Source: Oscillibacter valericigenes
GTDB lineage: Bacteria > Bacillota > Clostridia > Oscillospirales > Oscillospiraceae
Length of the DNA stretch: 51,227 nt
Assembly: GCF_016902445.1 (NCBI RefSeq)
Contig: NZ_JACSNX010000020.1
Coordinates: 1 to 51,227, forward strand
Reading direction: 5' to 3'
Shown here: piece by piece, positions 15,623-32,966 of the stretch
Numbering within the stretch: position 1 is the first letter of the stretch
How the letters are laid out: the number at the start of each line of letters is the position of its first letter
Notes under the pieces: generated by a model
Seen by the model: the letters and a program-made list of their open reading frames with translations, nothing else
Database searches by the model: none
What the model was told of the DNA's origin: nothing
Made by a program: the position numbers and the translations under genes

Positions 15623-16072
15623 TCAGCTCTCCATGTGCCGGCCCAGAAAGGCGGCGATGGTCTGGGCCAGCTTGTACTCCGTGTCGCCGGTGACGGCGGC
15701 GCCGTCGCTGGTGATGAACAGCACCAGGCCCAGCAGGTCCCCCTCCGCCAGGATGGGGGCCGCCACGGCGGTCAGCAGGGCGTCACTGCCCTCAGTGACC
15801 GGCAGGGGCTGGCCGTCGCCGGTGTACTGGTAGATCTTCCGGCCCTCCATGATCCGCTCCAGCTCCGGCGTGATCCGCTTGCCCATCAGCTCCCGCTTGC
15901 TGCCGCCGGCCACGGCGATGACCGTGTCCCGGTCCGTGACGGCGCAGACGCTGCCGGTGGAGCGGCTCATGGTCTCGCAGAGCTCGGTGGCGAAGTCCTC
16001 CACGCCGCCCAGCAGCGAGTATTTCTTGAAGATGACCTCGCCCTCCCGGCTGGTGTAGATCTCCAGGGGGTC
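15623..16072 (-). pseudogene. spoVT: spoVT 3' part, separated from its start by the element
   Basis: The last 147 codons of spoVT, present only as the tail of the recombinase reading frame. Beta-strand LEIYTSREGEVIFKKYS completes the AbrB-type DNA-binding fold that starts in the other fragment; the rest is the GAF-like signal domain (CAVTDRDTVIAVAGGSKREL, AAFLGRHMES). Joined to the 33 codons at 32782-32880 it gives 180 residues, against 178 for B. subtilis SpoVT as I recall it. This is an interrupted but undamaged gene: no frameshift or stop is visible. Confidence 0.9.
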
Positions 16073-17830
16073 ACCGTCACTGATAACATTGGCATGGAAC
16101 ACCTTGTCCGGATGCTGTTTTGCCTCCTGGACGATGGTGACAGGTGAGATATGTCCCATGCCTGGCTTAAAATTTACGGTACCCTCCGGAACCTCGGCCA
16201 TGGCGGCCACGGCGGCTTCCTCCGCCGCGCCCTCCGACAGCGTCCCGCTGCGCAGGATGCTGTCCACGTCCGCCTGGAGCTGGATCTCCAGCCGGTCCTC
16301 ATAGACCTTGATCTTCCGGATGATCAGCTCCAGGTCCCGGCGCTCCAGCCGCTCTTTATTCAGGATGTCCCGGAACACCTCCATGGCCGTGCGGGCCGCC
16401 CGGTTCACCCGGATAATGGTGTTGCGCTTGTCGGACAGCAGCTCGATCTGGTGACCGATGCCCTCGATCCTTTTTTGCAGGTCGCCCTCCAGCTCGTCGT
16501 AGGTCTGCTCCAGGATGTCCTCCTGGTCCGGGTGCTTCATCAGATCCCGGATGCGCTGGCGCTTGGTGACCTTCAGCTCCTCCTGGAGGTCAGAGAGCAC
16601 CTCCGCCAGGCGGTCGGCGCTCTGCTCCGTCTCCGCCACGTCCTCCTGCTCCCGGGCCAGGTCCTCGTTGAGCCGCTCCAGCATGTCTGCCGAGTGATCC
16701 ATCACCTGCCGGACGTAGGCTTTCAGCAGCTCGTCCAGCTTGTCGGCCCGGATGTGGTGGCTGGTGCAGCCCTTCAGGCCCCGGCGGTGGTAGGTGCCGC
16801 AGGTGTAGGCGCTCTTCAGGTCGCTACGGCTCAGGGAGAACATGGGGGCTCCACAGTCCCCGCACACCAGGAAGCCAGAGTAGGTGTTGTCATACTTCTT
16901 CACCCCTCGGTAGTGGGAGGTGGAGCGCTTTTCCCGCAGGGCCCGGGTGGTGGCGAAGGTGCGGTAGTCGATGATGGCCTGGTGGTGGTTTTCGATGACG
17001 ATCTGCTCCTCCTCGTCCCGGCGCACATCTTTGCCGTTGATCTTCCTCCGGGTGTACTTCCCCTGCCGCAGGGTGCCGATGTAGAAGTCGTTGTCCAGGA
17101 TGCCCTGGACCGTCACGATGGCCCAGACGGGCTTCACCGTCCGGCTGTACTCCTCTCCGGCGGCCTCCTTCCGGTCCCGCTCCGCCATGCGGGGGGTGGG
17201 GACGCCCTGGTCGGTAAAGTAATTGGCGATCTTCTTATACCCCCAGCCCTCCTCGTTGTAGAGGCGGAAGATGGTGCGCACCACGTCCGCCTCGGTGGGG
17301 ACGATCTCGAACTCCTGCCTTTTGTTCACGATGTAGCCGTAGGGGGCGGCGCAGATCCATTTTCCGTCCGCCTGCCGCCGTTTGATGACGTTCTTTACCT
17401 TTTTGCTGGTGTCGGTGACCGGCATCTCGTTGATGAGGAACTGGAACTGGATCTTCAGCCAGTCGTCGTCATTGGGAAAATCGATGTTGTCCCCAATGGA
17501 GATGATCCGCACCCCGGCGTCCCGAAGATCCTCCAGCTCCACCAGCCCCCGGCTGTTGCGCCGGGAGAAGCGGGAGAAGTCCTTCACCACCAGGATGTCG
17601 TACTGGTGGGACATGAGACCCCGCCGCATGGCCTGGTAGCCCTCCCGCTGCTCGAAGGTGTAGCCGGAGCGGTCCCGATCCTCGTAGAAGGTGAGGGTGC
17701 TGCCGGGGAACTTGTGGGCCACGAAGTCCTGGATGATGGCTTTCTGGTTCTCGATGGACACGTTGTCCCGGTCCAGCTCGTCGTCCACGGAGATTCGGGT
17801 GTAGCCGGCGATGTCAAAGGTCTCGGTCAT
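15623..17830 (-). CDS. Large serine recombinase fused to the SpoVT C-terminal part
   Basis: A 735-residue chimera. Residues 1-588 are a large serine recombinase: resolvase domain (about 6-150) with catalytic Ser14 in YTRISVDDE and RSGYTFEQREG, VVKDFSRFSRR; recombinase domain (about 165-300); zinc ribbon CGDCGAPM...CGTYHRRGLKGC; long coiled coil (about 370-500). Residues 589-735 are not recombinase but SpoVT from LEIYTSREGEVIFKKYS to the end, including its GAF-like domain. The join falls at the element boundary, where the recombinase frame runs straight into interrupted spoVT. The recombinase should catalyse integration and excision. It overlaps rhuM by 4 bp (ATGA). Confidence 0.92.
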   Translation of the reverse strand: MTETFDIAGYTRISVDDELDRDNVSIENQKAIIQDFVAHKFPGSTLTFYEDRDRSGYTFEQREGYQAMRRGLMSHQYDILVVKDFSRFSRRNSRGLVELEDLRDAGVRIISIGDNIDFPNDDDWLKIQFQFLINEMPVTDTSKKVKNVIKRRQADGKWICAAPYGYIVNKRQEFEIVPTEADVVRTIFRLYNEEGWGYKKIANYFTDQGVPTPRMAERDRKEAAGEEYSRTVKPVWAIVTVQGILDNDFYIGTLRQGKYTRRKINGKDVRRDEEEQIVIENHHQAIIDYRTFATTRALREKRSTSHYRGVKKYDNTYSGFLVCGDCGAPMFSLSRSDLKSAYTCGTYHRRGLKGCTSHHIRADKLDELLKAYVRQVMDHSADMLERLNEDLAREQEDVAETEQSADRLAEVLSDLQEELKVTKRQRIRDLMKHPDQEDILEQTYDELEGDLQKRIEGIGHQIELLSDKRNTIIRVNRAARTAMEVFRDILNKERLERRDLELIIRKIKVYEDRLEIQLQADVDSILRSGTLSEGAAEEAAVAAMAEVPEGTVNFKPGMGHISPVTIVQEAKQHPDKVFHANVISDGDPLEIYTSREGEVIFKKYSLLGGVEDFATELCETMSRSTGSVCAVTDRDTVIAVAGGSKRELMGKRITPELERIMEGRKIYQYTGDGQPLPVTEGSDALLTAVAAPILAEGDLLGLVLFITSDGAAVTGDTEYKLAQTIAAFLGRHMES
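16058..16092. other. Left element end, attachment site (attL)
   Basis: The spoVT side (16058-16070) ends in the core GGGTC (16068-16072). The element side has arm TCACTGATAACATTGG (16077-16092), the inverted partner of the arm at the right end. The TC at 16071-16072 is the predicted crossover dinucleotide. Confidence 0.85.
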
Positions 17831-18852
17831 GTGCTGCCGCCCCCTTTCAGATATTTTTCCATGGCCCTGTCAAAGTCGGAGATGTAGTCGGCGTCCTGCT
17901 TTTTGCGGAACTCCTCATACACGGCACCCACCTTCTTCATCGCTGCCTCGCGGGAGATGCGGCCCTTGCCCTCCAGCACGTTCCGGCGGTTGTTGGTGAG
18001 GAATAGGTCGGTCTCCCGCAACCAGTCCTCCATGGACATGGGCACCTGGTCCTCCGCCATCAGCTCGGCGTAGTCGATGAACATGGTGACAAGACGGTTG
18101 AGGCGGGAGATCTCTTTCTCATTCAAGTAGTTCTTGGCCACCAGGGTGTCACTTTTCAGAATCTTCCCGTCCGGCGCTCCCTTCCAGGTGGTCAGACCCA
18201 TGGTGGGGCTGTCCGGGTTGGCCCGCTCCGAGATCAGCTCCGCCGCCGTCTTGCCGGTGACGGCGAAGTGGAGCTTGTTCTGGACGAAGGCGTAGAAAGC
18301 CCGGGTGGTCTCGCTGTTTTTGTCGTAGTCATAGCTACACTGCTCGAACACATCAGCGATCTTCTGATAGGCCCGGCGCTCACTGGCCCGGATTTCCCGG
18401 ATGCGCTCCAGCAGCTCGTCGAAGTAGTCCCTGCCGAAGGGGCGGCCGTTTTTCAGCATCTCATCGTTGAGGACGAAGCCCTTCTGGATGTATTCCTTCA
18501 GCGTTTTGGTGGCCCACTGGCGGAACCGGGTGGCCTTCTTGGAGTTCACCCGGTAGCCCACAGCGATGATGGCGTCCAGGTTGTAGTGCTCCAGGGTGCG
18601 GCGGACCTGCCGGGAGCCCTCCTGACGAACCACCGAGATTTTCTCGGTAGTTGCCTCCGGCGTCAGCTCCTCCTCAGCGTAGATGTTTTTCAGATGCAGG
18701 GAGATGTTGTCAGTGGAGCAGTCAAACAGCTCCGCCATGCCGCTCTGGGTGAGCCAGAAGGTCTCGTCCTGAAATACCACGCTGACGAACTCCTTCTCGC
18801 CTCCGTTTTCATAGAGCAGAATCTCCCCCCTGGGACTTGGCTGTTTCTCCAT
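17827..18852 (-). CDS. RhuM-family protein
   Basis: A 341-residue protein of the virulence RhuM family, common on pathogenicity islands and integrative elements. Seen: a winged-helix-like N-terminus (TFWLTQSGMAELFDCSTDNI), the conserved block YNLDAIIAVGYRVNSKKATRFRQWAT (residues about 88-113), and a C-terminal half with a Fic/Doc-like-associated helical region found in longer family members. Biochemical function is unknown; roles as DNA-binding regulator or toxin-like protein have been proposed. It is the first gene of the recombinase operon and overlaps it by ATGA. GGAAGGAGG is the ribosome binding site. Confidence 0.85.
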   Translation of the reverse strand: MEKQPSPRGEILLYENGGEKEFVSVVFQDETFWLTQSGMAELFDCSTDNISLHLKNIYAEEELTPEATTEKISVVRQEGSRQVRRTLEHYNLDAIIAVGYRVNSKKATRFRQWATKTLKEYIQKGFVLNDEMLKNGRPFGRDYFDELLERIREIRASERRAYQKIADVFEQCSYDYDKNSETTRAFYAFVQNKLHFAVTGKTAAELISERANPDSPTMGLTTWKGAPDGKILKSDTLVAKNYLNEKEISRLNRLVTMFIDYAELMAEDQVPMSMEDWLRETDLFLTNNRRNVLEGKGRISREAAMKKVGAVYEEFRKKQDADYISDFDRAMEKYLKGGGST

Positions 18853-18891
18853 AGGTTCCTCCTTCCAACAATAAGGTTTTATCTATCGTTC

Positions 18892-18934
18892 TTATCTCAG
18901 ATAACATTGTATATGAACTTTCCCGAAATTGCAA
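18892..18934 (-). promoter_or_regulatory. Promoter and candidate operator of the rhuM-recombinase operon
   Basis: Read on the minus strand, TTGCAA (18934-18929) and TACAAT (18911-18906) are 17 bp apart. Directly downstream lies a dyad, TTATC-TCA-GATAA (18892-18904), and a further TTATCT copy at 18879-18884. A repressor bound there would block expression of the recombinase. Confidence 0.65.
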
Positions 18935-18952
18935 GGGGAAACGCAAAAATTT

Positions 18953-18986
18953 GGGGAGGCAGTTTGGCCGCCTCCCCATTTTTTTA
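18953..18986. terminator. Terminator before the rhuM operon
   Basis: GGGGAGGC (18953-18960) pairs with GCCTCCCC (18970-18977). T-tracts occur on both sides, and it begins right at the stop codon of the minus-strand gene at 18984. Confidence 0.75.
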
Positions 18987-19244
18987 CGAACCCATCACCA
19001 GCCCGGCCTGCTTCTCCGCCTGGACTTCCTTCTCTGCCAGCCGCCGGCGGTTGTAGAGCAGCAGGTCCCGGGTCTGCTGGTACAGATCCTCCTCCCCGGA
19101 GAGAAAGACCGCCACCAGATATTTTTGATCCTTATATTGCTGATAGATAGGCTTCAGCGACTCCCGGAAGGCGGGGTCGTCCCGCTCCTCCCGGGTGAGC
19201 CAGAGCTCCACGATCTTGCTCTGCTCCCTGATCTCCATGCGCAA
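18984..19244 (-). CDS. Small hypothetical protein of the mobilisation region
   Basis: An 86-residue, highly charged, helical protein (EIREQSKIVELWLTREERDD ... LLYNRRRLAEKEVQAEKQ). No family recognised. A TTG at 19244 has AAAGGGG about 11 nt upstream; the ATG at 19238 is an alternative start, two codons shorter. It lies between the relaxase gene and the recombinase operon and has a terminator at its end. Small helical proteins in this position are sometimes recombination directionality factors or plasmid-maintenance proteins, but nothing in the sequence proves that. Confidence 0.55.
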   Translation of the reverse strand: MRMEIREQSKIVELWLTREERDDPAFRESLKPIYQQYKDQKYLVAVFLSGEEDLYQQTRDLLLYNRRRLAEKEVQAEKQAGLVMGS

Positions 19245-19293
19245 TCATCGATCAACCCCTTTCCCATATTTTCCTCTCTGAAAAGGAAAATAT

Positions 19294-20673
19294 TCACATG
19301 GACTGCTCCCATTTCTGTTCTTCTTCGTGGTCATCGGCTTTGTGTCCCATGGCAATCTTCTTTTCCCTCTCCTTGCGGAGAGCTTTTTTGTCACCGTGGT
19401 GGTGCGTGGTGGTGGCGTCCCTCACGGGATCAGCGTGTGCATCATGTTCCAGAGTTTTTCCCAACTGAACCAGACCGCCCACAGCACGCCCCCAGTCAAC
19501 GCCAGGGCTGTCAGCCCCAGCAGCAGACTGCTCCAGGAGATGTCTGGCAGGCGCAGTTTGGGAAGTCTGAGCCTGGGCAGAGAAAAATGCCGCTCTCTCT
19601 TTTTCCCAGCCTGTTTCAGCTCCGCCCTCATTTGGGCCACATCCCCCGCCAGCGCCTCCAGTTGGGCCTGGGTGGGGAGCTGCCCCACCTGTCGGCCCAA
19701 CGCCCGAAGTAGGGCCTCCTGTGGGCCAACGCTGGCCTCCAGGCGCTCCAGCCGGTCGCTGTTCGTTTTTTCCAGCCGGTACAGGGCAGTGAGCGCCGCC
19801 AGCAGATCGTCCCAGTTCTGCCCCGTGGGGGCATCCGGCGGCGCGGCCGGTGCGGACGGGGCCGGCGGCTGGTTCAGCCGTTTCAGTTCTTCCACGGACA
19901 ATCTCTGCCCGGATCCGGAATTCACGTTCCATGACCTCCTTGGTGTACTTTTCCTCGTGGAGCCGGTCATCCCGGCACTTCATGCCCTCTGGCGTGGTGT
20001 AGGTGATGTTCTTCCGGCTGTCCATCCAGCGCACCTGGTAGCCCTCGCTCTCCATCAGGGAGAGGAACTCGTCTTTGGTAGCAGAGTATCTCATGCACTG
20101 GTCGATGGTGTTCATCAGCCGGAACTTCCAGCTCTGGCCCTTGGCGGCAGATCGATACTCGCGGGTGCCCATGCCCTGGGACTGTTTTTTCTTCTGCTGT
20201 GGTAGGACAGAGAACCCATGCTCCAGACACAGCTCATCCGACAGCTGTCGCAGGCTGCGAAGGGTATTGGGGCCCTGCCGGAGCATTTTCCCGCTCTCCC
20301 AGCACACCGCGTTGACAACAAAGTGAGAGTGGATGTGCTCGGCGTCCAGGTGTGTAGCAATCAACACCTCGCTGTCCGGCCAGGCTTTTGCGGCGAACTC
20401 TTTCGCCAGTTGGTGAGCCTGTTCCCCGGTGATCACCTCGTCCGGAGAAAAGGACTGGACGTAGTGGTAGAACCAGACGGGGCTGTCCTTGCGGCAGGCG
20501 TCCCGGGTAGCCTGGAACTCCCGGTCGGCCAGCTGTGGCGTGCAGTTCTGCCCGCTGACCAGCTGCCGGCCATTCTCGTCCAGTGTTTTTTCATCCTGCG
20601 AGATGTATCGTGTCACGCCGCTCAGCGCACCGGCGGACTGCTTTTTGTACTTGATGAAGTTGACGGTGGCCAT
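19294..20673 (-). CDS. mobL: MobL/MobA-family relaxase
   Basis: Predicted to nick the element's oriT and lead the transferred strand. The N-terminal relaxase domain (about residues 1-250) shows VNFIKYKKQSAGALSGVTRY with a likely catalytic Tyr, and the three-histidine metal motif HLDAEHIHSHFVVNAV. The frame stays open to residue 459, but from about residue 250 it is Gly/Ala/Pro-rich and overlaps another gene in a different frame, so the true functional end is unclear; the last 45 residues are again charged and protein-like. Its ATG overlaps the mobC stop (TGATG), so the two are coupled. No coupling protein or mating-pair genes accompany it. Confidence 0.85.
   Translation of the reverse strand: MATVNFIKYKKQSAGALSGVTRYISQDEKTLDENGRQLVSGQNCTPQLADREFQATRDACRKDSPVWFYHYVQSFSPDEVITGEQAHQLAKEFAAKAWPDSEVLIATHLDAEHIHSHFVVNAVCWESGKMLRQGPNTLRSLRQLSDELCLEHGFSVLPQQKKKQSQGMGTREYRSAAKGQSWKFRLMNTIDQCMRYSATKDEFLSLMESEGYQVRWMDSRKNITYTTPEGMKCRDDRLHEEKYTKEVMEREFRIRAEIVRGRTETAEPAAGPVRTGRAAGCPHGAELGRSAGGAHCPVPAGKNEQRPAGAPGGQRWPTGGPTSGVGPTGGAAPHPGPTGGAGGGCGPNEGGAETGWEKERAAFFSAQAQTSQTAPARHLLEQSAAGADSPGVDWGRAVGGLVQLGKTLEHDAHADPVRDATTTHHHGDKKALRKEREKKIAMGHKADDHEEEQKWEQSM
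19422..19925 (-). CDS. Membrane-anchored coiled-coil protein nested in the relaxase gene
   Basis: A 167-residue protein in another frame within the relaxase gene. The GTG start at 19925 has a strong AAGGAGG (19941-19935) 9 nt upstream, itself inside relaxase codons. Seen: SVEELKRLNQ, a Pro/Ala linker, a coiled coil with TNSDRLERLEASVG and LEALAGDVAQMRAELKQAG, a basic patch, and a C-terminal membrane helix (SSLLLGLTALALTGGVLWAV). The amphipathic heptads and helix make this frame look like real protein, whereas the relaxase frame here is low-complexity. A role anchoring the relaxosome or coupling to a helper is plausible but unproven. Confidence 0.7.
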   Translation of the reverse strand: MNSGSGQRLSVEELKRLNQPPAPSAPAAPPDAPTGQNWDDLLAALTALYRLEKTNSDRLERLEASVGPQEALLRALGRQVGQLPTQAQLEALAGDVAQMRAELKQAGKKRERHFSLPRLRLPKLRLPDISWSSLLLGLTALALTGGVLWAVWFSWEKLWNMMHTLIP

Positions 20674-20990
20674 CAGCGGTGCTCCTGTTCGGCCAGCTCC
20701 CGGAGCTGATGGTAGATCCGCCCCAAGGCCTCCAGAGTCTCACACAACCGGACTTCCTGAATCTTGCCCATGTTGGCCAGCACCACCAGCTGGTTGACGT
20801 TTCGGCCGATGCCCTTGAGCTCGTGGGTGAACTCTTTCAGCCCGTCGATCACCATCACCCGGTGCCGCAGGGCGGCGGCGCGGACGTAGGCGCCCGTGGA
20901 CATGTGGGCCGCCTCCGCCTTGGCCTGGATGGTTTCATATTGCTCCGGTGTCACCCGGAGCGTGATCCGTTTCTCTTTTTTCTGCTTCAT
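20673..20990 (-). CDS. mobC: MobC-like relaxosome accessory protein
   Basis: A 105-residue protein with an N-terminal ribbon-helix-helix (KRITLRVTPEQYETIQAKAE, MSTGAYVRAAAL) and the MobC-type segment LKGIGRNVNQLVVLANMG. MobC proteins bind oriT and help the relaxase open DNA. The start at 20990 has GAGG about 5 nt upstream; the longer open frame to 21287 runs through the hairpin-rich non-coding region and is rejected. It is first in the mob operon and overlaps mobL by TGATG. Confidence 0.88.
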   Translation of the reverse strand: MKQKKEKRITLRVTPEQYETIQAKAEAAHMSTGAYVRAAALRHRVMVIDGLKEFTHELKGIGRNVNQLVVLANMGKIQEVRLCETLEALGRIYHQLRELAEQEHR

Positions 20991-21300
20991 TCGCACCTCT
21001 CGTTTCCTCGTCTCACCAAACGAGAGCCCAGCGGAGCGGGTCTCGTTTGGAAAGGAGACGCAGTGTAGTGAATTTACTTTCGGCTTTTTGCCGAAAGCAA
21101 ATGATATGGAACTTGCGTCGACGCAGTGGGTCCGGGCTTCCGCCCGGAATACGCCGGTTTTCCGGCGGCGCCAAGACCGACAAAGTCGGACAGGTGCTCT
21201 GCTTGCCCTCCCAAAAGGGAGGAGTCCGTTCCCCGGCGGGGCCACCGTTTTCCTGTGGCAGTGATCCGCAGAGAAGGAAGAATGCAAGGGTGCAAAGCCC
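20991..21300. other. Candidate oriT and hairpin cluster upstream of mobC
   Basis: This 310-bp gene-free stretch carries a perfect 10-bp inverted repeat CCAAACGAGA/TCTCGTTTGG (21016-21025/21041-21050) with a 15-nt spacer, placed just before mobC as oriT dyads usually are. Further hairpins follow: CTTTCGG (21077-21083/21091-21097), palindrome TGCGTCGACGCA (21114-21125), TCCGGGC (21131-21137/21142-21148), CGCCGG (21152-21157/21162-21167), CCGAC (21177-21181/21185-21189), CCTCCC (21207-21212/21217-21222). The nick site cannot be named from sequence alone. Confidence 0.6.
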
Positions 21301-22281
21301 TTAGGCCGTTACATCCTTACAGCCTTGCTCCGGCAGATGCCAGTACCACTGGCCGCCCCGCTTCTCCGAAATGACACCCAGGTTTTTCTTGGCGATCATC
21401 AGGGTGCGCTCCGACACTCCCAGCTCTCTGGCCCGGCTCAGCACGGCCTCGGCGGGCGTGGTCTCCGTGAGCATCCGCTCCAGCTCCTCCTCCATCTGGG
21501 TGGTCTTGGTCTGGAACCTCCCGCCGCCGCTGAGCACATCGTCCACCGACAGGTCGCAGGCTCCCTTCCACTGGAAGCCGTGCTCCCCGTCCAGCAGGAA
21601 GGCGATGGACTTTCCCTCGGGAGCAAGGCTGTTCTTGTCCTGGGCGACCACACGCACCGTCGGGTCCTCTTTCAGCCGCCCCACCACCAGCACGCTCCGG
21701 GCGGCGGCCCGGAAGTCGATGGATCCCAGGCCCCGGTAACCGGCCTTCAGCCCCTGGGCCTTGTTCATGTGCCCGATGAGGATCACGGCACATCCGGTGC
21801 GCTCCGCCATGGCCGCCACTCGTTTCAGAACGGGACGCACCTCGTTGGCCCGGTGCATGTCCACACCGTCCCCCAAGTATGCCTGGATGGGGTCCAGCAC
21901 GATGAGCTGTGCTTTGGTCTGCTGGACCGCCTGCTCCAGCCGCTGGTCACAGAGGGTCAGCTCCCGCTGGCTCTCGTCGATGACCAGCACCCGGGAACAG
22001 TCCGCGCCGGCGGCGTCCAGCCGTGGCTTGATGGTGTCCGCCAGCCCGTCCTCCGCCGTCTGGTAGATCACGTTCAGCGGCTCCAGCGCCTGTTCGCTCT
22101 CCGGCAGGGCCTCACCCCGGGTCAGGGCGGCGATGATCGCCAGCACGAAGGTGGTCTTGCCCTCGCCAGGGTCGCCCTGGACGATGGTCAGCTTTCCTCG
22201 CGGGAGATACGGATACCAGAGCCATTTCACCTCCTCTGCTCTGATCTCGCCCATGGAAATGAGCTTCAGATCAGGTTTCAT
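21301..22281 (-). CDS. RepA-like RecA-fold ATPase
   Basis: A 326-residue AAA_25/RepA-type ATPase, related to hexameric plasmid replicative helicases. Walker A is VQGDPGEGKTT (about residues 33-43), Walker B LIVLDPIQAYLG, and GHMNKAQG and RGLGSIDFRAAARSVL follow, as in RSF1010 RepA relatives. The C-terminal part resembles a winged helix (LSRARELGVSERTLMIAKKN). It may allow replication of the excised circle. The start at 22281 has AAGGA at 9 nt; the upstream extension to 22452 crosses the divergent promoter region and is rejected. Confidence 0.8.
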   Translation of the reverse strand: MKPDLKLISMGEIRAEEVKWLWYPYLPRGKLTIVQGDPGEGKTTFVLAIIAALTRGEALPESEQALEPLNVIYQTAEDGLADTIKPRLDAAGADCSRVLVIDESQRELTLCDQRLEQAVQQTKAQLIVLDPIQAYLGDGVDMHRANEVRPVLKRVAAMAERTGCAVILIGHMNKAQGLKAGYRGLGSIDFRAAARSVLVVGRLKEDPTVRVVAQDKNSLAPEGKSIAFLLDGEHGFQWKGACDLSVDDVLSGGGRFQTKTTQMEEELERMLTETTPAEAVLSRARELGVSERTLMIAKKNLGVISEKRGGQWYWHLPEQGCKDVTA

Positions 22282-22426
22282 TTCCTCACATCCTTTCCTG
22301 TGTGTTCGCGAAAGCGACCATTCCCTTCCCGCCGTTTTCATGATAAAATCAGAAAAGGAAAACTTACATGGGAAAGGAACTTCCCGATTTTTTGAAAAAG
22401 TCGATGCGACGGAAGGGAGGTAGCTC

Positions 22427-23824: not shown

Positions 23825-23830
23825 GTAACA

Positions 23831-25645: not shown

Positions 25646-25646
25646 A

Positions 25647-27533
25647 TCATATCTCCCACACCGTCTCGTCCCCGCAGATGTTGCGGATCTTCAGCCGCAG
25701 GGGTTTCCCTTCACTGCGGATCGTACCGTCCCAGAAGTCCTTGGTTTTCTCGCCGTTTTGGATGACAAAGCCGTTCTTGTCGATCTTGATCTCACTGTCG
25801 GAGTGCCACTCGCCCTGGGCGGCGGTGCAGTCCAAACTCAGGTACTCGATCAGCTCCAGGCCGGTGTCGCTGATCTCGATGGGCTTGAAGGGCTTCTTGG
25901 CGGTGGCGTTTAAGCGGGCCTTTTGGTTGAACTCGTCGATTTTCTGGAGCACCCGGTCGCTGACGAAGGCGTCCACCGCCACGGCATAGCGGCCGAAAAG
26001 GTCGTCCGTCCGCTCCTCTATATGGAACTGTGCCCAGTCGCCGATGACCACGCCGTCCAGCACCGCTTTCAGATCCCGCAGTTCGATCTCCACATCGGTG
26101 CTGTCGTCCTGGGCGATAAACTTGCGGATCTCCTCCTCACTGGTGATGTCGATGTAGTAGACAATAACCTTTTTGATGCTGCTGTCCAGATCGGGGATGG
26201 CCTGATGGATGATGCGGTTCATGGTTACCACATCCAGCAGCTTGGAGGAGCTGTCCATCAGGTTGGGAACATAGACCGGGATGGTGCCCAGCCTGCTGTC
26301 GGTGATGGCACCCTCCCAGAAGGAGTCCAGGGAGTCCTCATTTTTCAGCCCGGGGATCAGGGATTTGATCTTGTCCATAGTCTGGACTGGGTTGCGGTAG
26401 AGCTGGACACCGTCTTTGATCTCCAGCACCTCAAACTGGGCGCCGTCCGCCTTCAGCCGATCCCGGGTGGTCTGGATGGAGTTGAGGCCGATGTCACAGT
26501 GGATGAACCGGCGGCCCAGTTTACTGGCCGCCGCCGCCGTGACGCCGCTGCCGCCGAAGAAGTCGGCCACCAGCATTCCCTCGTTGGAAGAGGCTTTGAT
26601 GATGCGCTCTAATAATACCTCAGGCTTTTGAGTAGAGTAATCAACAGATTCTTTTGCAGAATTATTAATCTTATCGATGTCCCAAACATCATCAACAACA
26701 ACGCCTTCTTTAATGGCTTCGTCTAAATATCGGGCTACTCGTTTCCCTCCGCCAGCGTCTGATAGCACATATCGTCTTCCATTTTCATCTATTAGTGGTT
26801 TTTGTTTCCGCTTTTTTATATATTCATCTTCTGATTCCCATTGTTCAAAAAACGAATTGAAGTTTTTACCATTATCATCTAAGCAATAATAGAGTAATGT
26901 GTCGTGACGTTTTTCAAAACTGTTTTTTAGTTTCTTATTCCACCCTGAATAATGCCACACAATATCATTTGAAAAGCAGTCTTCCCCAAAAATCTCATCC
27001 ATCAAAATTTTTACATAATGTACAATGTGCCAATCCAGATGCACATAGATGGACGCCGTCTCACTCATGACACTCTTGATGGCCATGAGGTTTTCATACA
27101 TCCAGCTGAGGTACTTCTCCTTGTCCCACACATCGCCGTACATCTTCTCCTCAAAGGCCTTCAGCTCGTCCATGTCCAGCTCCTGCTCCGCCTGGGCGAT
27201 GGCCTCGGCCACCTTGGGGTTGCGGCGGATGTAGACCTTCTTGGCATAGTCGGCGCCGCTGGCAAAAGGCGGATCGATATAGACCAGATCCACCTGGATG
27301 CCCTGATCCTTCAGATAGGCACAGGCGGAGACGCACTCCCCCCGGATCACCAGGTTACCGTCCGGATTCCCGCCCACCGTCTCCTGTTGCTCCATCTCAT
27401 ACAGGGGCATCCCCCGCTGGAGCACCATGGACACATCGTCCGCGCCCTTGTACTTGAGGATGCGGTTGAAGTTGCCCAACACAGCCTGTCCCTCGACGGG
27501 CTCGGGGATGAAGGGGATATATTTAATCGGCAT
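25647..27533 (-). CDS. Type III-like DNA methyltransferase (Mod)
   Basis: A 628-residue beta-class amino-methyltransferase, predicted to methylate adenine in the recognition site. Catalytic motif IV is YIDPPFASG (residues about 85-93) and the AdoMet motif is VADFFGGSG (322-330), in the beta order, with the recognition region between. Size and layout match Type III Mod subunits, which also specify the site for Res. The segment encoding roughly residues 175-312 is strikingly AT-rich compared with both flanks, as if the recognition domain had been swapped in. It lies 3 bp after the Abi_alpha gene and 1 bp before the DUF4365 gene. Confidence 0.88.
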   Translation of the reverse strand: MPIKYIPFIPEPVEGQAVLGNFNRILKYKGADDVSMVLQRGMPLYEMEQQETVGGNPDGNLVIRGECVSACAYLKDQGIQVDLVYIDPPFASGADYAKKVYIRRNPKVAEAIAQAEQELDMDELKAFEEKMYGDVWDKEKYLSWMYENLMAIKSVMSETASIYVHLDWHIVHYVKILMDEIFGEDCFSNDIVWHYSGWNKKLKNSFEKRHDTLLYYCLDDNGKNFNSFFEQWESEDEYIKKRKQKPLIDENGRRYVLSDAGGGKRVARYLDEAIKEGVVVDDVWDIDKINNSAKESVDYSTQKPEVLLERIIKASSNEGMLVADFFGGSGVTAAAASKLGRRFIHCDIGLNSIQTTRDRLKADGAQFEVLEIKDGVQLYRNPVQTMDKIKSLIPGLKNEDSLDSFWEGAITDSRLGTIPVYVPNLMDSSSKLLDVVTMNRIIHQAIPDLDSSIKKVIVYYIDITSEEEIRKFIAQDDSTDVEIELRDLKAVLDGVVIGDWAQFHIEERTDDLFGRYAVAVDAFVSDRVLQKIDEFNQKARLNATAKKPFKPIEISDTGLELIEYLSLDCTAAQGEWHSDSEIKIDKNGFVIQNGEKTKDFWDGTIRSEGKPLRLKIRNICGDETVWEI

Positions 27534-27536
27534 GGA

Positions 27537-28331
27537 TTATCTTTCCTTTCCCAAGCACACTTCTATAAATTGTTTGCCGTAATCATTTGCCACAACCGCA
27601 TGATTACTAATTTTAATTTCGATTTCTTTTCCAAATGCTTCAAAGATTTTTTTTCGTGACTGTATATATGGAGCAGATTTTAATGTTTCGTAGTCAGCAC
27701 TTTGAATAGACCCATCTATAATATTAATCAATCCGAGTCTTCTCAAATTGATAAGTGAGGAAGACACCAGGAATGGATCTGCAATATGACTCAATTCTTC
27801 TACGAAATAATCCGGCATCCCATTTATATACATTTGGCTTGAGTCTTTTAGTGCAAATCTTGCTGTTATACAGCGCAATTGTTTATAGCTTGAAATCTCA
27901 GAAATCACCCTTGCATCTAAAGAGTTCATTTGTCGTATTGTCTCCACAAAGGCAGGGTGGGCTTTTGAAACGGTTCTATTGTCCATGGAAGATGCGAGTA
28001 GATTTTCATACATCTCCCGTAACTCTGCCTCATCGTATGTATATCGTAAAGCCTCAAGCGCGGGACCAGCGACTGATATGGGTGGGGGTTGCAAATTTTC
28101 ATCCGGAATATCACTTATCTTCGCTTTCAGATCGTCCTCAAAGGCCTCTAACTTATACCGGAAAGTCAGATTGGCTTTTTTGACCGGGTACAGGACAACA
28201 TGATTGAAAAAGCCCACTACTGCAGATAACGCCCCATCTGCTTGCTTTTCTGTTTCTGGAAGATTCTGATGTATTGCGTTAGAAATAGGCTCTATAGCAT
28301 CGGGTAAAATAGATGATTTATTATCACTCAT
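27537..28331 (-). CDS. Abi_alpha (DUF4393) family protein
   Basis: A 264-residue protein resembling the Abi_alpha family: FFNHVVLYPVKKANLTFRYK near residue 50, LREMYENLLASSMD in the middle, and a winged-helix-like C-terminal region (LINLRRLGLI). Members have been linked to abortive infection, but the mechanism is not known to me. It sits between Res and Mod with gaps of 2 and 3 bp, an unusual place that suggests it acts with them. The gene is AT-rich relative to the chromosome. Confidence 0.75.
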   Translation of the reverse strand: MSDNKSSILPDAIEPISNAIHQNLPETEKQADGALSAVVGFFNHVVLYPVKKANLTFRYKLEAFEDDLKAKISDIPDENLQPPPISVAGPALEALRYTYDEAELREMYENLLASSMDNRTVSKAHPAFVETIRQMNSLDARVISEISSYKQLRCITARFALKDSSQMYINGMPDYFVEELSHIADPFLVSSSLINLRRLGLINIIDGSIQSADYETLKSAPYIQSRKKIFEAFGKEIEIKISNHAVVANDYGKQFIEVCLGKER

Positions 28332-28333
28332 AA

Positions 28334-31195
28334 TCAGCCCTCCTCAAAAAATGCACAAATCTTTCTCTGTGTCAGCACAAGCCTCTCCCGCTCCGACATA
28401 CTGTCCTCCAGATACAGGTACTCAAACCGCTCATAGCCGAAGGCGGCATTGTTCTGGCGGAGGAACTCTGTCTCCATAAAGGTTTTCCGATCCTTAAATT
28501 TGGGGTCGTTGGCATATGCCTGGCCCTTGGTCTCGGCAATCAGCACCTTGTGGATCACGCCGCCCTTCCGTTGGAAAATCAGGAAGTCCGGTGTGTACAG
28601 CCCTACATACTCCCAGCGGCCCCCGCTGTGCCGGTAGCACTTGATTTTAAACTCGGTCAGCGCCCGGTCGCCGTTATAGTAAACCTCCAGGCCCAAATGC
28701 TCCACCTCCGGGAAGGTGAGTACTTCATTCAGAAAGTCCTGTTCAAAGGAGCTGTCGGTGTGGTAGGGAAGATAGTGGAAAGAGCGATCCTTCTGGGGGT
28801 GTGAGGTAAACTTCTTCCGGAGCGAGGCCAGGATGTCCTCCTGCCCCAGCTCCTGGGCCAAGTCCATCATTGCCTGGGCTTTCTTGTCCAGTTTCAACTT
28901 GCCCCGGTCATCCAGAATGATCTTTTCCACCTGCTCCTGTTTGGGGCAGTAGTCATCCGGATTCGTTGTCTCAACCACCGGTGTGAAGTTCGTAATATTC
29001 AACAGGCTGGCCGACTGGGGGATGCACTCCTCCTTTGTCTCAAAGGAGCGGCTGTCGCAGAAGGCTTTTCGGATATTGGCCTCCACCGCAGCCCGGTCAT
29101 ACCTGGAGCTGAAGTAGCGGCCATCGTCCCGCTGGTAGGTGATGGTCTGGAACACCTCCCGCAGGATAGGGTCATAGGGCAGCAGCTGCTCCATGGTGAG
29201 GGTCTCCAGGGAGCGGCGAACGATCCCGCAGAGCCAGGGGAAGTAGCTGGCGGGGGTATCGCCGTGCTCCGCGTCGTCCACCGTCCGCTCCAGCACCTCC
29301 ATGGTGAGGTCGGTGGTCTTGATCACTCCGGCAACTATCTGCGTGTTTTTACAGGCGTCGGGCAGATTTTCCTCTGGCCGGGCCTTCTCTGCGATCAGCG
29401 TCTCATAGCGGATCTTCAACTGATAGAAGTCCACCTTGGGGAGCCGAAGGTACTTCGTCCGGTCGTAGCGGTTCAGCTTGGTCTTGTGGTGATCCGCATC
29501 GGTAAACTCCTGGAGGGAGATATGGTGCTGTTTCTGCAGTTGGCTGTTGAGCTTGTCCGCATTGCTGCTGTTGAGATAAATGAGAGCGGTCTCCAGGGCG
29601 TCCTTCTGCACCTGGCGCAGACAGCGGCAGGCCGTCTGGAGCACCATGTTTTTGGGACAGTCCCCCTCCTGGGAGAGGATGATCCCCGTCAGACTGCGGC
29701 AGTCCCAGCCCTCTTTCCCGATTTGCACCAGCAGGATGATGCGAACCTTGGAGAAGGGCTGATCCAGGCTGTCAAATTCCATCTGGCTGTCCGCCGGCTG
29801 GGGGTACTGCTTGTTGCCTTTGTGAAATTTCAGGATGCAGTCGGCGGACAGGCCGTATTCCGCCGTGATGCCGGCTACCAGAGGATAGACCAACTCCTCC
29901 AGCTTTTCGATGGTTCCGCAGTAGATGCCCAGCTTGGCACAAGTCCCGTCCGGGTAGACCGTGTCTTTATAATTGTCCAGAAACTCCCGAACGCCTCGGT
30001 CAATGATCCGTCCGCTGTCAGGCAGCTCCGCGATCTTCACGATGGGTCTTTTGAGAAAATTCCCCACGCCATCGATCAGCGGATAGTAGTAGACGATGTT
30101 GGAGATCTCCGCAGAGGAGACGGAGAGGCCATCCGTCACCTGGATCTTTTCCGCTTTTTCCAGATAGGGGGTACCGGAGAAACCGACAACGGAATTGATG
30201 GTCTGATTTTCCGCCCACTTGTTGACCACTGCGCGGAGCTTGATCTCATCGCTGACCGCGTGGTGGACCTCGTCAATGAACACGGACAGGGCGGGCAGCT
30301 TTCCGATCAGGTTTCGCAGCTCGTTGGCCTGCCGGTCCTTTTCATCGTCGCTCTCCTCAAACATGCTGATCTGTCCGGCCTTTTCCTGGATGCGATCCAG
30401 GATCACCTTCTCCGCATTGGTCACAGCTACCAGGCCGAACAGCTCAGACAGCGGCTGGTGGTTAGCAATCTTCTGCACGTTGGGATTTTTCGTTTTATTA
30501 GACTTCTTCGCCGTCTTGGACTGATCCAGCACCTCAAAGGACAGTAGCCGCTTGATCTCCGATGCCGCCGGCTCCGGGATCACCCAGGTGGGGTCAAACC
30601 GCTGGATGGTCTTCAAACTTGGCACCACGGAGGACTTCAGGCCGGAGGGAGCGAAGATCATAAAGTTATGGGCAAAGGCTGGGTTATTCGGTTCATTTCT
30701 GGCAAAATACAGATCCAGGTAGATGAATGCCGCCATCAGATAGGTCTTTCCCGCCCCCATGGGGAGACTGAACAGGTAGTCTGTATAGGACACCCCATAG
30801 AAGGCCTTCTGGAAGAATATTTCATAATCAATACTCTCCGGGTCTTTGCGGATCTGCTTTTCCAGCATTTCGGAAACCTGTTCCCCGCTGTCATTTTTTA
30901 GACGGGCATATTCAAACAGCGCCGCAGCAGCAGGATGGGTAGCCAGAAAGTCACGGATGCTGGCGGAAATTTCCTCCTGCTCCAAGTCCAGGGTATTGAA
31001 TGCCCCCTGGCAAAATAACTGCGAGAGCGGCACACATCCACAGGCGATTTTCAGGTACAGATATGTCTTGATGGCATCCACCTGGGCGTCACGCATCTGG
31101 TTTGTCTGCTCAATATATTTCACGACCTCCCGCGCAGTACAAGCAGGGGAGGAAAACCAACGGTCCCGTGCATTGGTGATCATTTGATAAAACAT
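28334..31195 (-). CDS. Type III-like restriction subunit (Res): SF2 helicase with nuclease domain
   Basis: A 953-residue protein. Helicase motifs in order: Walker A SLPMGAGKTYLMAAF, DEAH-like VFIDEVHHAV, VGFSGTPYL, QIGKEGWDCRSLTGIIL and TACRCLRQ. The C-terminal domain ends in a PD-(D/E)xK nuclease: GLYTPDFLIF and VLIAETKGQAY. This is the full layout of Type III Res. Res normally needs Mod for site recognition; here mod lies downstream with an Abi_alpha gene between. Its ATG overlaps the stop of the upstream HTH gene (TGATG), so translation is coupled. Confidence 0.88.
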   Translation of the reverse strand: MFYQMITNARDRWFSSPACTAREVVKYIEQTNQMRDAQVDAIKTYLYLKIACGCVPLSQLFCQGAFNTLDLEQEEISASIRDFLATHPAAAALFEYARLKNDSGEQVSEMLEKQIRKDPESIDYEIFFQKAFYGVSYTDYLFSLPMGAGKTYLMAAFIYLDLYFARNEPNNPAFAHNFMIFAPSGLKSSVVPSLKTIQRFDPTWVIPEPAASEIKRLLSFEVLDQSKTAKKSNKTKNPNVQKIANHQPLSELFGLVAVTNAEKVILDRIQEKAGQISMFEESDDEKDRQANELRNLIGKLPALSVFIDEVHHAVSDEIKLRAVVNKWAENQTINSVVGFSGTPYLEKAEKIQVTDGLSVSSAEISNIVYYYPLIDGVGNFLKRPIVKIAELPDSGRIIDRGVREFLDNYKDTVYPDGTCAKLGIYCGTIEKLEELVYPLVAGITAEYGLSADCILKFHKGNKQYPQPADSQMEFDSLDQPFSKVRIILLVQIGKEGWDCRSLTGIILSQEGDCPKNMVLQTACRCLRQVQKDALETALIYLNSSNADKLNSQLQKQHHISLQEFTDADHHKTKLNRYDRTKYLRLPKVDFYQLKIRYETLIAEKARPEENLPDACKNTQIVAGVIKTTDLTMEVLERTVDDAEHGDTPASYFPWLCGIVRRSLETLTMEQLLPYDPILREVFQTITYQRDDGRYFSSRYDRAAVEANIRKAFCDSRSFETKEECIPQSASLLNITNFTPVVETTNPDDYCPKQEQVEKIILDDRGKLKLDKKAQAMMDLAQELGQEDILASLRKKFTSHPQKDRSFHYLPYHTDSSFEQDFLNEVLTFPEVEHLGLEVYYNGDRALTEFKIKCYRHSGGRWEYVGLYTPDFLIFQRKGGVIHKVLIAETKGQAYANDPKFKDRKTFMETEFLRQNNAAFGYERFEYLYLEDSMSERERLVLTQRKICAFFEEG

Positions 31196-31389
31196 CAGCG
31201 GTCTCCTTTAAAAACTTCTTTGGCTTGACGAGTTCTTCCATCCAACGGTTTCTGTGCATCTTTTGGGATAGCCCAGACCCGTCCCAAGCGATATGCGCCT
31301 GGGATGCGACCATTTCCGCACAGAATCTCAACTCTCCGCTGAGTAAGGCCCCATTCCGCCGCTTTATCTTTTGGTGTCACATAGTCCAT
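31195..31389 (-). CDS. Small HTH protein, first gene of the defence operon
   Basis: A 64-residue protein with a MerR/excisionase-like helix-turn-helix: MDYVTPKDKAAEWGLTQRR, VEILCGNGRIPGAYRLGR, VWAIPKDA. Start at 31389 is set by AAGGGG 9 nt upstream. It overlaps the res start codon. It could be a controller protein for the restriction genes or an excisionase-type directionality factor for the recombinase; the sequence does not decide. A dyad in its upstream DNA may be its own operator. Confidence 0.75.
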   Translation of the reverse strand: MDYVTPKDKAAEWGLTQRRVEILCGNGRIPGAYRLGRVWAIPKDAQKPLDGRTRQAKEVFKGDR

Positions 31390-31433
31390 ATCTAAAAACC
31401 CCTTGTTTTTGAACGGCTTTTCTGACATTATAC

Positions 31434-31463
31434 ATCGATTTGCCGAATAATACAAATATCGAT
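31434..31463. promoter_or_regulatory. Candidate operator ahead of the defence operon
   Basis: ATCGATTTG (31434-31442) faces CAAATATCGAT (31453-31463), an imperfect dyad ending in ATCGAT on both sides, about 45 bp before the HTH gene start. TATTAT inside the dyad (minus strand) could be the -10 box. Confidence 0.4.
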
Positions 31464-31522
31464 CACACAGATTTGTTACGAACTTTGTTGTACACTATTT
31501 TTTAGTGCAATAGGGTAAAGGA

Positions 31523-31563
31523 AACCCAGCCTGCATAGATACTTACTCCATGCGGGCTGGGTT
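31523..31563 (-). terminator. Terminator of the BRO-N gene
   Basis: A 14-bp stem AACCCAGCCTGCAT (31523-31536/31550-31563, one wobble pair) with a 13-nt loop, then TTTCC on the minus strand. It separates the BRO-N gene from the defence operon. Confidence 0.75.
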
Positions 31564-31600
31564 TGTGCCTGAGTGCTTAGGCAAGCTATAAGCTCTGCAT

Positions 31601-32536: not shown

Positions 32537-32694
32537 GGTATGTACCTCCCGGCTGATCAGCCTCATTTTACCACATCCTGCACTGTAAAGCGAGACAGAA
32601 ATGGGTCTCTTTGCCTGCCAATGTGGTCTGTTTTCCTCTGATTTTGCTCCTTTACACCCCTCTCGAATATCTACGGTGGAAAGGATGCCATTCG

Positions 32695-32880
32695 TCAGGA
32701 TGTACAACTCCACCCGCCCCGTTTTGCCAGATCCAGCATTCCAACGCAGAATTTCTGCCACGGCTCCAATGTAATCAGTGATGGGTCGCCTTCCCGGATC
32801 CGCATGGTGCGCCGGATCTCCTTGGGGATCACCACCCGCCCCAGGTCGTCGATCCGCCGCACGATTCCAGTTGCCTTCAT
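32695..32880 (-). pseudogene. spoVT: spoVT 5' part, cut by the element
   Basis: A 61-codon frame. Residues 1-33 are the start of SpoVT (MKATGIVRRIDDLGRVVIPK, then EIRRTMRIREGDP); residues 34-61 are element sequence (SLITLEPWQKFCVGMLDLAK...) ending at a stop. The AbrB-type swapped-hairpin domain is broken before its last strand, so a functional DNA-binding dimer is unlikely. The ATG has AAAGGAG about 10 nt upstream, and a forespore-type promoter lies further up. SpoVT is a sigma-G-dependent regulator of late forespore genes and spore coat/germination properties in Bacillus. Confidence 0.92.
32766..32800. other. Right element end, attachment site (attR)
   Basis: Element arm CCAATGTAATCAGTGA (32766-32781), one base, core GGGTC (32783-32787), then spoVT sequence (32788-32800). 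The arm is the inverted partner (15/16) of the left arm. The TC at 32786-32787 is the predicted crossover dinucleotide. Confidence 0.85.
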
Positions 32881-32937
32881 ATCGAAAACTCTCCTTTGCC
32901 ATTGAGATTTTTGAGGATGATTCTGCCTGGCAAAAGC

Positions 32938-32966
32938 TAGTATCCGCAGGATTTGTTTGGCTATGC
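32938..32966 (-). promoter_or_regulatory. Sigma-G/sigma-F-like promoter of spoVT
   Basis: Read on the minus strand: GCATA (32966-32962), 17 bp, GATACTA (32944-32938). The forespore consensus is gHATR and CATnHTA, so only the first -10 base differs. The implied leader is about 50 nt. Agrees with sigma-G control of spoVT in Bacillus. Confidence 0.65.

What the first reader, a model, noticed from the sequence alone, without database searches (positions are those of the whole stretch)
15623..32966. A mobile element splits spoVT and may restore it on excision
Seen: the first 33 SpoVT codons (32880-32782) and the last 147 (16066-15623) are separated by about 16.7 kb. Joined at the shared core they give a continuous 180-residue SpoVT with no frameshift or stop, including the usual RIREGDPLEI join. 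Known: skin in sigK and similar elements interrupt sporulation genes and leave by recombinase action during sporulation. Inference: this element is either such a regulated intervening element or a recent insertion that keeps spoVT repairable. I know of no described element in spoVT, but I could not search.
Basis: partly seen in the sequence, partly recalled or inferred. Interest (0 to 1): 0.95.

Follow-up and report, generated by a model that had tools for sequence, protein, structure and literature searches.

The report
Recombinase that borrows spoVT's tail
In this bacterium a 16.7-kb mobile element splits the sporulation gene spoVT so that the element's recombinase gene runs in frame into the rest of spoVT, the same join is seen in 97 of the 101 loci examined, and a forespore-type promoter motif before a small partner gene suggests that the element is predicted to leave, and so repair spoVT, inside the developing spore rather than in the dying mother cell.

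Summary
The split is real: 33 spoVT codons, a 16,715-bp element, then 147 codons. It is not a private accident. The recombinase frame has no stop of its own at this end and reads into SpoVT; 97 of 101 loci examined (91 distinct) do the same, on recombinases that move between hosts. At the other end the 33 codons read into a conserved element-coded tail. So attP lies inside the recombinase gene, and integration exchanges the recombinase's last ~28 residues for SpoVT residues 34-180. The predicted unintegrated form exists among public metagenome proteins (97% identity over all 616 residues). In all 36 genomes where I paired both ends, the joined flanks read in frame. One 84-residue gene, sm86, accompanies the recombinase almost everywhere; I predict that it is the directionality factor. 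It has a forespore-type promoter motif; the only other match in the window precedes spoVT. I therefore favour excision in the forespore, the germ line, unlike skin and SPbeta, which leave only the mother cell. Excision, its compartment and re-integration are untested. The window's copy carries relaxase, restriction-like and abortive-infection genes.

The parts
32938..32966 (-). promoter-like motif of spoVT, GCATA-N16-GGATACTA
   Evidence: one of only two exact matches to GNATA-N14..18-GGAWAMTA on both strands of the window; the pattern was drawn up after seeing sites of this kind
32782..32880 (-). spoVT codons 1-33 (5' part)
32786..32787 (-). attL crossover dinucleotide GA (inferred)
   Evidence: centre of the inverted attP arms, the same in 36 of 36 paired genomes; coordinate, recounted
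32695..32781 (-). element-coded tail (28 codons and stop) in frame behind the 33 spoVT codons; in the unintegrated form it would be the recombinase's own C-terminus
   Evidence: identical tail in the natural 616-residue protein P0001
31601..32539 (-). Bro-N protein (PDC-S13 in PADLOC)
31195..31455 (-). small protein, no Pfam or PADLOC match
28334..31195 (-). ResIII-type restriction/helicase protein
27537..28331 (-). Abi_alpha protein (PDC-S47)
25647..27533 (-). N6/N4 DNA methyltransferase (type II/III-like)
23831..25645 (-). 604-residue protein, no family match
22427..23824 (+). DUF6076 protein
21301..22452 (-). AAA_25 ATPase
20673..21287 (-). NikA-like/MobC mobilization protein
19294..20673 (-). 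MobA/VirD2-type relaxase
19267..19295 (-). forespore-type promoter motif of sm86, GAATA-N16-GGAAAATA
   Evidence: second of two exact matches in the window; motif present in sm86 upstreams 40/83 exact, 58/83 with at most one mismatch
18984..19238 (-). sm86, 84 residues and stop, predicted recombination directionality factor
   Evidence: upstream of the recombinase in 72 of 80 loci; 18 of 21 fused genomes against 1 of 129 others
17827..18852 (-). RhuM-family protein; its stop overlaps the recombinase start
16067..17830 (-). large serine recombinase, element-coded part (588 codons)
16071..16072 (-). attR crossover dinucleotide GA (inferred)
15623..16066 (-). spoVT codons 34-180 and stop, in frame with the recombinase

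Best explanation
This is a mobile element whose attachment site lies inside its own serine-recombinase gene, so that integration into spoVT gives the recombinase the SpoVT sensor domain, and its small partner protein sm86 is predicted to drive excision in the forespore, which would rebuild spoVT there. Shown: the element splits spoVT at codon 33/34; the recombinase frame runs into SpoVT codons 34-180; the spoVT start runs into a conserved element-coded tail; the 616-residue recombinase ending in that tail exists among public metagenome proteins. Inferred: (1) sm86 is the directionality factor; (2) its motif is a sigma-F/sigma-G promoter, so sm86, and probably RhuM and the recombinase behind it, are made in the forespore; (3) excision there restores spoVT in the compartment where sigma-G will transcribe it; (4) the freed circle, now coding a recombinase with its own tail and no longer supplied with sm86 after germination, re-integrates into spoVT; (5) the exchange of C-termini helps to set the direction, since the C-terminal region is where directionality factors act in this enzyme class. 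Step 5 is the weakest.
For: Fusion in 97 of 101 loci given, 94 of them running to a stop behind a SpoVT part of 135-151 residues. Element-coded tail in frame at attL, 36 of 36 paired genomes, with pN/pS 0.30 over tail codons 14-24 beyond the attP arm. attP arms are inverted about the same GA in 36 of 36 (12-17 of 19 positions complementary; 32 of 36 never reached by 500 shuffles, the other four by 1-5). Natural unintegrated-form proteins P0001, P0121, P0122. sm86 is the only companion gene found in most loci: 72 of 80, 53 of 55 with at least 3 kb upstream; 18 of 21 fused genomes against 1 of 129 others. Textbook consensus scans made before any motif was drawn up: sigma-F within one mismatch in 27 of 79 sm86 upstreams (0.3 expected), sigma-G within one mismatch in 38 of 48 spoVT upstreams (0.9 expected). 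Derived motif: 58 of 83 sm86 upstreams, 0 of 93 upstreams of the recombinase gene, 2 of 29 of the sigma-E gene spoIVA; 36 of the 41 exact matches in 1.24 Mb lie within 80 nt upstream of sm86; box columns carry up to 2 bits, most spacer columns under 0.3. Sporulation genes present.
Against: No excision has been observed. attP was not found in 400 genomes of the family (up to 2 mismatches), in IMG/VR or in the 308 loci held, and only 3 of the 120 listed proteins have the unintegrated form; P0122 has an unrelated N-terminus and may be a misassembly. These junctions could also come from tandem copies. The derived promoter motif is weak in known forespore genes here: gpr 4 of 27, SASP 0 of 22, and spoIIR gave no clear signal. 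sm86 matches no known directionality factor by family, PDB sequence or fold. sm86 was not found in fused genomes G097, G039 and G119. Excision in the forespore risks loss of the element from the lineage. The SpoVT fusion may be a mere by-product. The fusion model is poor (pLDDT 66, pTM 0.32).
Confidence: 0.55

Rival explanations
1. An ordinary integrative and mobilizable element that uses spoVT as its target and simply disables it until rare excision; the fusion and the tail are consequences of where attP lies and have no role.
For: Relaxase and MobC in the window. Recombinase and SpoVT identity are almost unrelated across 4,278 pairs (Spearman 0.11), so insertions are often recent. 38 ungapped clusters of SpoVT parts among 157 full fused proteins, most with recombinases near-identical to the window's. 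spoVT loss may be tolerated by gut anaerobes (inference). MobA was found in only 18 and MobC in 12 of 80 loci, but at most 10 kb were inspected.
Against: It does not explain why sm86, and not the recombinase, carries a promoter motif akin to that of spoVT in most loci, nor why 94 of 94 fused frames that reach a stop keep a SpoVT part of 135 residues or more.
Confidence: 0.27
2. [quoted passage not shown]
For: Same general anatomy as skin, SPbeta/spsM, gin and yin: serine recombinase inside an element that splits a sporulation gene (passages of PMC5025042, PMC4191935, PMC5595907, PMC10747680).
Against: spoVT is a forespore gene: sigma-G dependent in C. difficile (passages of PMC3738446) and sigma-G-like here in 38 of 48. 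Mother-cell healing would not supply the forespore. A sigma-E pattern was found before sm86 in 3 of 83 (0.4 expected); the same pattern was in 4 of 29 spoIVA upstreams, so it is a weak probe.
Confidence: 0.06
3. The fusion is a selected hybrid protein with a new function in the integrated state, for example a recombinase kept silent or activated by the SpoVT GAF domain, and excision is not part of sporulation.
For: Fusion conserved down to about 52-57% identical recombinases (L021, L022); SpoVT part always complete; linker predicted to supply two strands before the host strands (low confidence).
Against: Fused SpoVT parts follow the host, so the hybrid is rebuilt at each insertion and cannot be tuned by descent; L020/L096 and L043 keep a recombinase without SpoVT at other sites.
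Confidence: 0.12

Closest known systems
skin element in sigK (C. difficile skinCd; CD1231 recombinase and CD1234 directionality factor)
   Same: serine recombinase inside an element that splits a sporulation gene; a small separate directionality factor under developmental control while the recombinase is not (passages of PMC5025042)
   Different: there the factor is mother-cell specific and the spore keeps the element; here the target and the predicted factor have forespore-type promoters, and the recombinase is fused to the host gene
SPbeta prophage in spsM (SprA/YokA, SprB/YotN)
   Same: recombinase of the same class; YokA is the nearest full-length recombinase among solved structures; excision rebuilds a sporulation gene (passages of PMC4191935)
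   Different: prophage, mother-cell excision, factor unrelated to sm86 by the searches made
gin in gerE and yin in yabG
   Same: gin is a non-phage intervening element with GirC and a small GirX; yin circularises in culture (passages of PMC5595907 and PMC10747680)
   Different: gerE belongs to the sigma-K mother-cell programme, and a putative sigma-K promoter is reported before the yin factor; no host-gene fusion was seen in the passages
integration-dependent immunity of mycobacteriophage BPs
   Same: attP lies inside a coding gene, and integration changes the C-terminus of its product (abstract of PMC4557955)
   Different: there the gene is the repressor and integration shortens it; here it is the recombinase, and integration swaps a short tail for a host sensor domain
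engineered integrase-directionality factor fusions
   Same: extra sequence at the integrase C-terminus changes direction of recombination (abstract of PMC5737554)
   Different: artificial, and the fused part is the directionality factor, not a host domain
SSV1-type archaeal integrases
   Same: attP within the integrase gene (recalled; review PMC8371274 seen in a listing only)
   Different: tyrosine enzyme, and integration splits the gene instead of leaving it open with a new end (recalled)

Membership tests
sporulation gene-intervening elements (skin type) | element inserted within a sporulation gene | tested here: met
sporulation gene-intervening elements (skin type) | serine recombinase inside the element | tested here: met
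sporulation gene-intervening elements (skin type) | joining the flanks restores the reading frame | tested here: met
   36 of 36 paired genomes over the 72-nt junction; full 180 codons for the window
sporulation gene-intervening elements (skin type) | separate directionality factor | tested here: inconclusive
   sm86 by association only; no family, sequence or fold match
sporulation gene-intervening elements (skin type) | mother-cell target gene and mother-cell control of excision | tested here: not met
   by promoter motif only: forespore-type motifs before spoVT and sm86. For this reason it is not filed as skin type; it is said to work like one
sporulation gene-intervening elements (skin type) | excision during sporulation | not testable with these tools
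   needs sporulating cultures
integrative and mobilizable elements | own integrase and relaxase | tested here: met
integrative and mobilizable elements | no complete conjugation apparatus | tested here: inconclusive
   none among the 13 element proteins scanned with Pfam, which cover the larger open frames but not every small one
integrative and mobilizable elements | mobilisation by a helper | not testable with these tools
   experiment needed
large serine recombinases | Resolvase, Recombinase and zinc-ribbon domains | tested here: met
   Ser14, Arg12, Arg87 and Arg90 invariant among 38 aligned rows (that Ser14 is the nucleophile is recalled)
large serine recombinases | short symmetric attP with a central dinucleotide | tested here: met
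integration-dependent switch (BPs type) | attP inside a coding gene, C-terminus changed by integration | tested here: met
integration-dependent switch (BPs type) | the change alters activity | not testable with these tools
   biochemistry needed

The most novel reading that the evidence does not exclude
A germ-line intervening element: sigma-F in the forespore turns on sm86, the fused recombinase cuts the element out of the future spore's chromosome just before sigma-G needs spoVT, the circle travels in the spore and re-integrates at outgrowth, and the exchange of recombinase C-termini (SpoVT domain when integrated, own tail when free) tells the enzyme which state it is in. Every spore would then carry a healed chromosome plus a free mobile element.
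Probability: 0.42. Interest if true: 0.95.

Novelty: new variant of a known kind. Interest (0 to 1): 0.85.

Why it matters
Elements that interrupt sporulation genes are described as leaving only the doomed mother cell, which is how they stay in the lineage (passages of PMC4191935). An element in a forespore gene with forespore-type control would break that rule and would make each spore a moment of mobility. About one in seven of the family genomes sampled carries the fusion (21 of 150), with varied cargo, so it could be a common vehicle among gut spore-formers. An attachment site inside the recombinase gene is also a natural example of an enzyme whose end is rewritten by its own reaction. I found no description: no paper in the library holds 'serine recombinase' with 'spoVT' or two of 'SpoVT_C', 'PF15714', 'SpoVT C-terminal', 'serine recombinase', and the two papers with intervening, sporulation and spoVT are a C. 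difficile sporulation study and an Epulopiscium genome study. Subscription papers and preprints are not held.

Tried and rejected
Intact and fused spoVT in one metagenome bin (G150) as proof of excision: rejected, the two differ by 18% at nucleotide level. G184 likewise holds an intact spoVT that is only 68% identical to the fused one. A free circle in L020/L096: rejected, the recombinase there runs into what looks by eye like the 3' end of lepA (recognised from memory), so it is another integration site. The 4.2-kb 'Bacteriophage sp.' record MT839487.1 as a circle: rejected, it merely ends before the junction. Viral contigs gave no relative and plasmids none at E 1e-50. An attP pattern was absent from 400 genomes, IMG/VR and the 308 loci held. 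spoIIR as a sigma-F control gave 2 of 26 within one mismatch and was uninformative. The sigma-E pattern used was not discriminating: it also matched 12 of 48 spoVT, 4 of 27 gpr and 4 of 22 SASP upstreams. Pairwise dN/dS of the SpoVT part among fused loci shows low values in close pairs but cannot separate selection after insertion from selection before it, so I do not use it. The structure of sm86 (pLDDT 81.7, pTM 0.48) has no PDB match at E 0.001. The model of the fusion is too poor for claims on the linker. Scan counts use related sequences: 82 distinct sm86 upstreams fall into 42 protein clusters at 70% identity, 25 of which have a member within one mismatch of the derived motif. The derived motif was drawn up after looking at the sequences; only one search used consensus sequences fixed beforehand (recalled from B. 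subtilis).

Rows left out: the 101 loci are the window, L003-L022 and L032-L111. L023 (frameshifted copy elsewhere, G014), L024 (46% relative with its own stop, G143) and L025 (fused fragment, G119) were not in that count. L032-L111 are the best 80 of 302 relatives, so distant ones are under-sampled. One search used 36 genomes; left out were three duplicates by another handle (G145, G095, G053), G143, G165 (three left ends, two fusions) and G163, G167 and G181 (incomplete left ends; a stop lies in the G167 match).
Full report
On the minus strand, spoVT codons 1-33 (32880-32782) and codons 34-180 (16066-15623) are separated by an element; joined, they give an uninterrupted 180-residue SpoVT. 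The genome has no other SpoVT_C match, and a species of the same genus has an unbroken 180-residue gene, 84% identical.

The element's recombinase is fused to SpoVT. The 735-codon frame 17830-15623 carries Resolvase, Recombinase, zinc-ribbon and SpoVT_C domains in one reading frame. Searching 150 genomes of the same family with it found the fusion in 21, the window's own and one contig fragment included. A scan of 84,980 species genomes found 302 loci with a relative of the recombinase; the best 80 were kept. Of 101 loci examined (window, 20, 80) 97 are fused in frame, 91 of them distinct; 94 reach a stop codon behind a SpoVT part of 135-151 residues and three run off the contig. The four without fusion are L020 and L096 (one locus found twice, at another site), L043 (other DNA follows) and L086 (contig ends first). 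Several carriers are isolates, so this is not a metagenome artefact.

The fusion is rebuilt at each insertion rather than inherited as a gene. Recombinase identity and SpoVT identity are nearly unrelated across 4,278 pairs (Spearman 0.11); of 163 pairs with recombinases above 85% identity, 95 have SpoVT parts below 65% (six loci are present twice). Among 157 full fused proteins from the 5.8-billion-protein search, the SpoVT parts fall into 38 clusters, by a crude ungapped clustering.

The other end mirrors this. Behind spoVT codon 33 the frame stays open into an element-coded tail, typically SQTTLxxWxxFCxxMLDLAKRxGW. Among 39 genomes reached through the loci, 27 have the 33-codon start plus tail over its near-full length and three have partial ones. 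Of 42 distinct left ends (three of which are not of this kind or are cut: L030, L178, L184), 37 align without gaps: beyond the attP arm, pN/pS is 0.30 (tail codons 14-24) and 0.36 (codons 8-24), which points to a translated tail. The simplest reading is that attP lies inside the recombinase gene and that the tail is the recombinase's own end in the free form.

That reading made a prediction, and the prediction was met. Searching with the window's recombinase joined to the left-end tail returned a natural 616-residue protein, P0001, 97% identical over its whole length with an identical tail and 36 member sequences; the other 119 listed carry SpoVT_C. A second search on the junction alone listed two more with tails, P0121 (610 residues) and P0122 (395 residues, with an unrelated start, perhaps misassembled), against 117 fused ones among the 120 shown of 302. 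They may stem from circles or from tandem copies. In assembled genomes attP is not seen: 0 of 400, none in IMG/VR and none in the 308 loci held. So the integrated state prevails in what has been sequenced.

Attachment sites. For 36 genomes with both ends I joined the element halves and the host halves. attP has inverted arms about the same GA dinucleotide in 36 of 36; 12-17 of 19 arm positions are complementary, never reached by 500 shuffles in 32 genomes and reached 1-5 times in four. The joined host halves read ...REGDPLEIYT... (RDGDP once) without a stop in all 36. Codon wobble agrees: the third base of the proline codon is G in 33 of 36 left ends but varied in right ends (20 G, 8 C, 7 T, 1 A), as expected if the crossover lies before it. 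In the window the crossovers are 32787-32786 and 16072-16071 (recounted).

A partner gene. Against the stretches upstream of the recombinase in the 80 loci (at most 10 kb), most cargo of the window is absent: relaxase in 18, MobC in 12, RhuM in 19, DUF6076 in 6, the restriction and Abi genes in none. One gene is nearly universal: an 84-residue protein (window 19238-18984) in 72 of 80, and in 53 of the 55 loci with at least 3 kb upstream. In the 150 family genomes it occurs in 19: 18 of the 21 fused ones and G014, which has a broken recombinase. It has no Pfam family, no PDB relative and no fold match, and about 1,900 relatives in the protein collection. I call it sm86 and predict that it is the recombination directionality factor, which serine integrases need for excision (abstract of PMC5737554; passages of PMC5025042).

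Timing. spoVT is a forespore gene under sigma-G in C. difficile (passages of PMC3738446). With textbook consensus sequences (recalled), 38 of 48 spoVT upstreams here match sigma-G within one mismatch (0.9 expected), and 27 of 79 sm86 upstreams match sigma-F within one mismatch (0.3 expected); sigma-A and sigma-E patterns matched no sm86 upstream at that level. A motif then read off the sequences, GNATA-N14..18-GGAWAMTA, occurs exactly in 40 and within one mismatch in 58 of 83 sm86 upstreams (0.6 expected), exactly in 23 of 48 spoVT upstreams, in 0 of 93 upstreams of the recombinase gene and within one mismatch in 2 of 29 upstreams of the sigma-E gene spoIVA. Known forespore genes match it poorly (gpr 4 of 27, SASP 0 of 22 within one mismatch), although the sigma-G consensus is enriched there (6 of 27 and 6 of 22, against 0 of 29 for spoIVA). 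In 1.24 Mb of loci there are 41 exact matches, 36 of them within 80 nt upstream of sm86. The boxes are conserved, most spacer positions are not, and 57 sites lie 28-45 nt before the start codon with spacers of 16 or 17. In the 51-kb window there are exactly two matches, one before spoVT (32966-32938) and one before sm86 (19295-19267), where shuffles give 0.01 on average. The hosts keep sporulation genes: spoIVA in 40 of 41 and 29 of 29 genomes, spoIIR in 26 of 30, gpr in 28 of 29, SASP in 22 of 23; the window's genome has all four.

Model. In the growing cell the element sits in spoVT and makes a recombinase with a SpoVT tail. In the forespore sigma-F (or sigma-G) would switch on sm86 and probably the genes behind it (RhuM, recombinase; the last two overlap). 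Excision would rebuild spoVT in the compartment and at the time it is needed. The circle codes the own-tail recombinase; once sm86 is gone after germination, integration would be favoured. Shown are the anatomy, its conservation, the attachment sites, the free-form protein and the motifs; inferred are the role of sm86, the compartment, the re-integration and the role of the tail exchange.

How it differs from what is known. skin, SPbeta and the elements in spoVFB and spoVR are described as leaving only the mother cell, so that the spore keeps them (passages of PMC4191935 and PMC5025042); gin and yin were seen in passages. An element under forespore control would be of a new sort. The nearest match to the tail exchange is phage BPs, whose attP lies in its repressor gene (abstract of PMC4557955). 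Because the mother-cell feature fails by motif, I do not file this as a skin-type element; I say that it works like one, in the other compartment.

Cargo. The window's copy carries relaxase and MobC, an AAA ATPase, and a block with methyltransferase, ResIII and Abi_alpha proteins, Bro-N and RhuM. Elements in five relatives with both ends on one contig span about 16, 16, 19, 22 and 40 kb; by eye their cargo differs, with large surface proteins in some and a polysaccharide cluster in the longest (not searched by family).

Noticed in passing
L020 / L096 (G029, Oscillibacter sp. Mgla_MAG_ref_444): A 74% identical recombinase is integrated elsewhere, at what looks by eye like the 3' end of lepA, with spoVT intact in the genome: a natural off-target or retargeted insertion without fusion.
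   Followed up: partly
G143: L178, L186, L024: spoVT is split at the same codons by an element whose nearest recombinase (46% identical) ends at its own stop, so spoVT can be occupied without the fusion.
   Followed up: partly
G165: L047, L055, L165, L181, L182: One bin with two fused recombinases and three different left ends: tandem insertions or a strain mixture.
   Followed up: no
L194-L196 (G078): A 40-kb member whose cargo looks by eye like a polysaccharide or glycosyltransferase cluster.
   Followed up: no
L030:525-626 (G080): A second copy of the first 34 spoVT codons, identical in sequence to the query, lies 0.9 kb from an intact spoVT: perhaps a remnant of an insertion.
   Followed up: no
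L198 (MT836658.1, 'Bacteriophage sp.', human faeces): A record labelled phage encodes a 52% identical recombinase whose frame ends in a SpoVT-like C-terminus, with an sm86-like frame before it (by eye); the label is doubtful.
   Followed up: partly
window 23831-31455: Methyltransferase, ResIII and Abi_alpha genes next to a 604-residue protein without family: a possible undescribed defence set.
   Followed up: partly
window 12330-13460 (-): A nucleotide-binding protein with a very histidine-rich stretch, seen in the ORF list.
   Followed up: no
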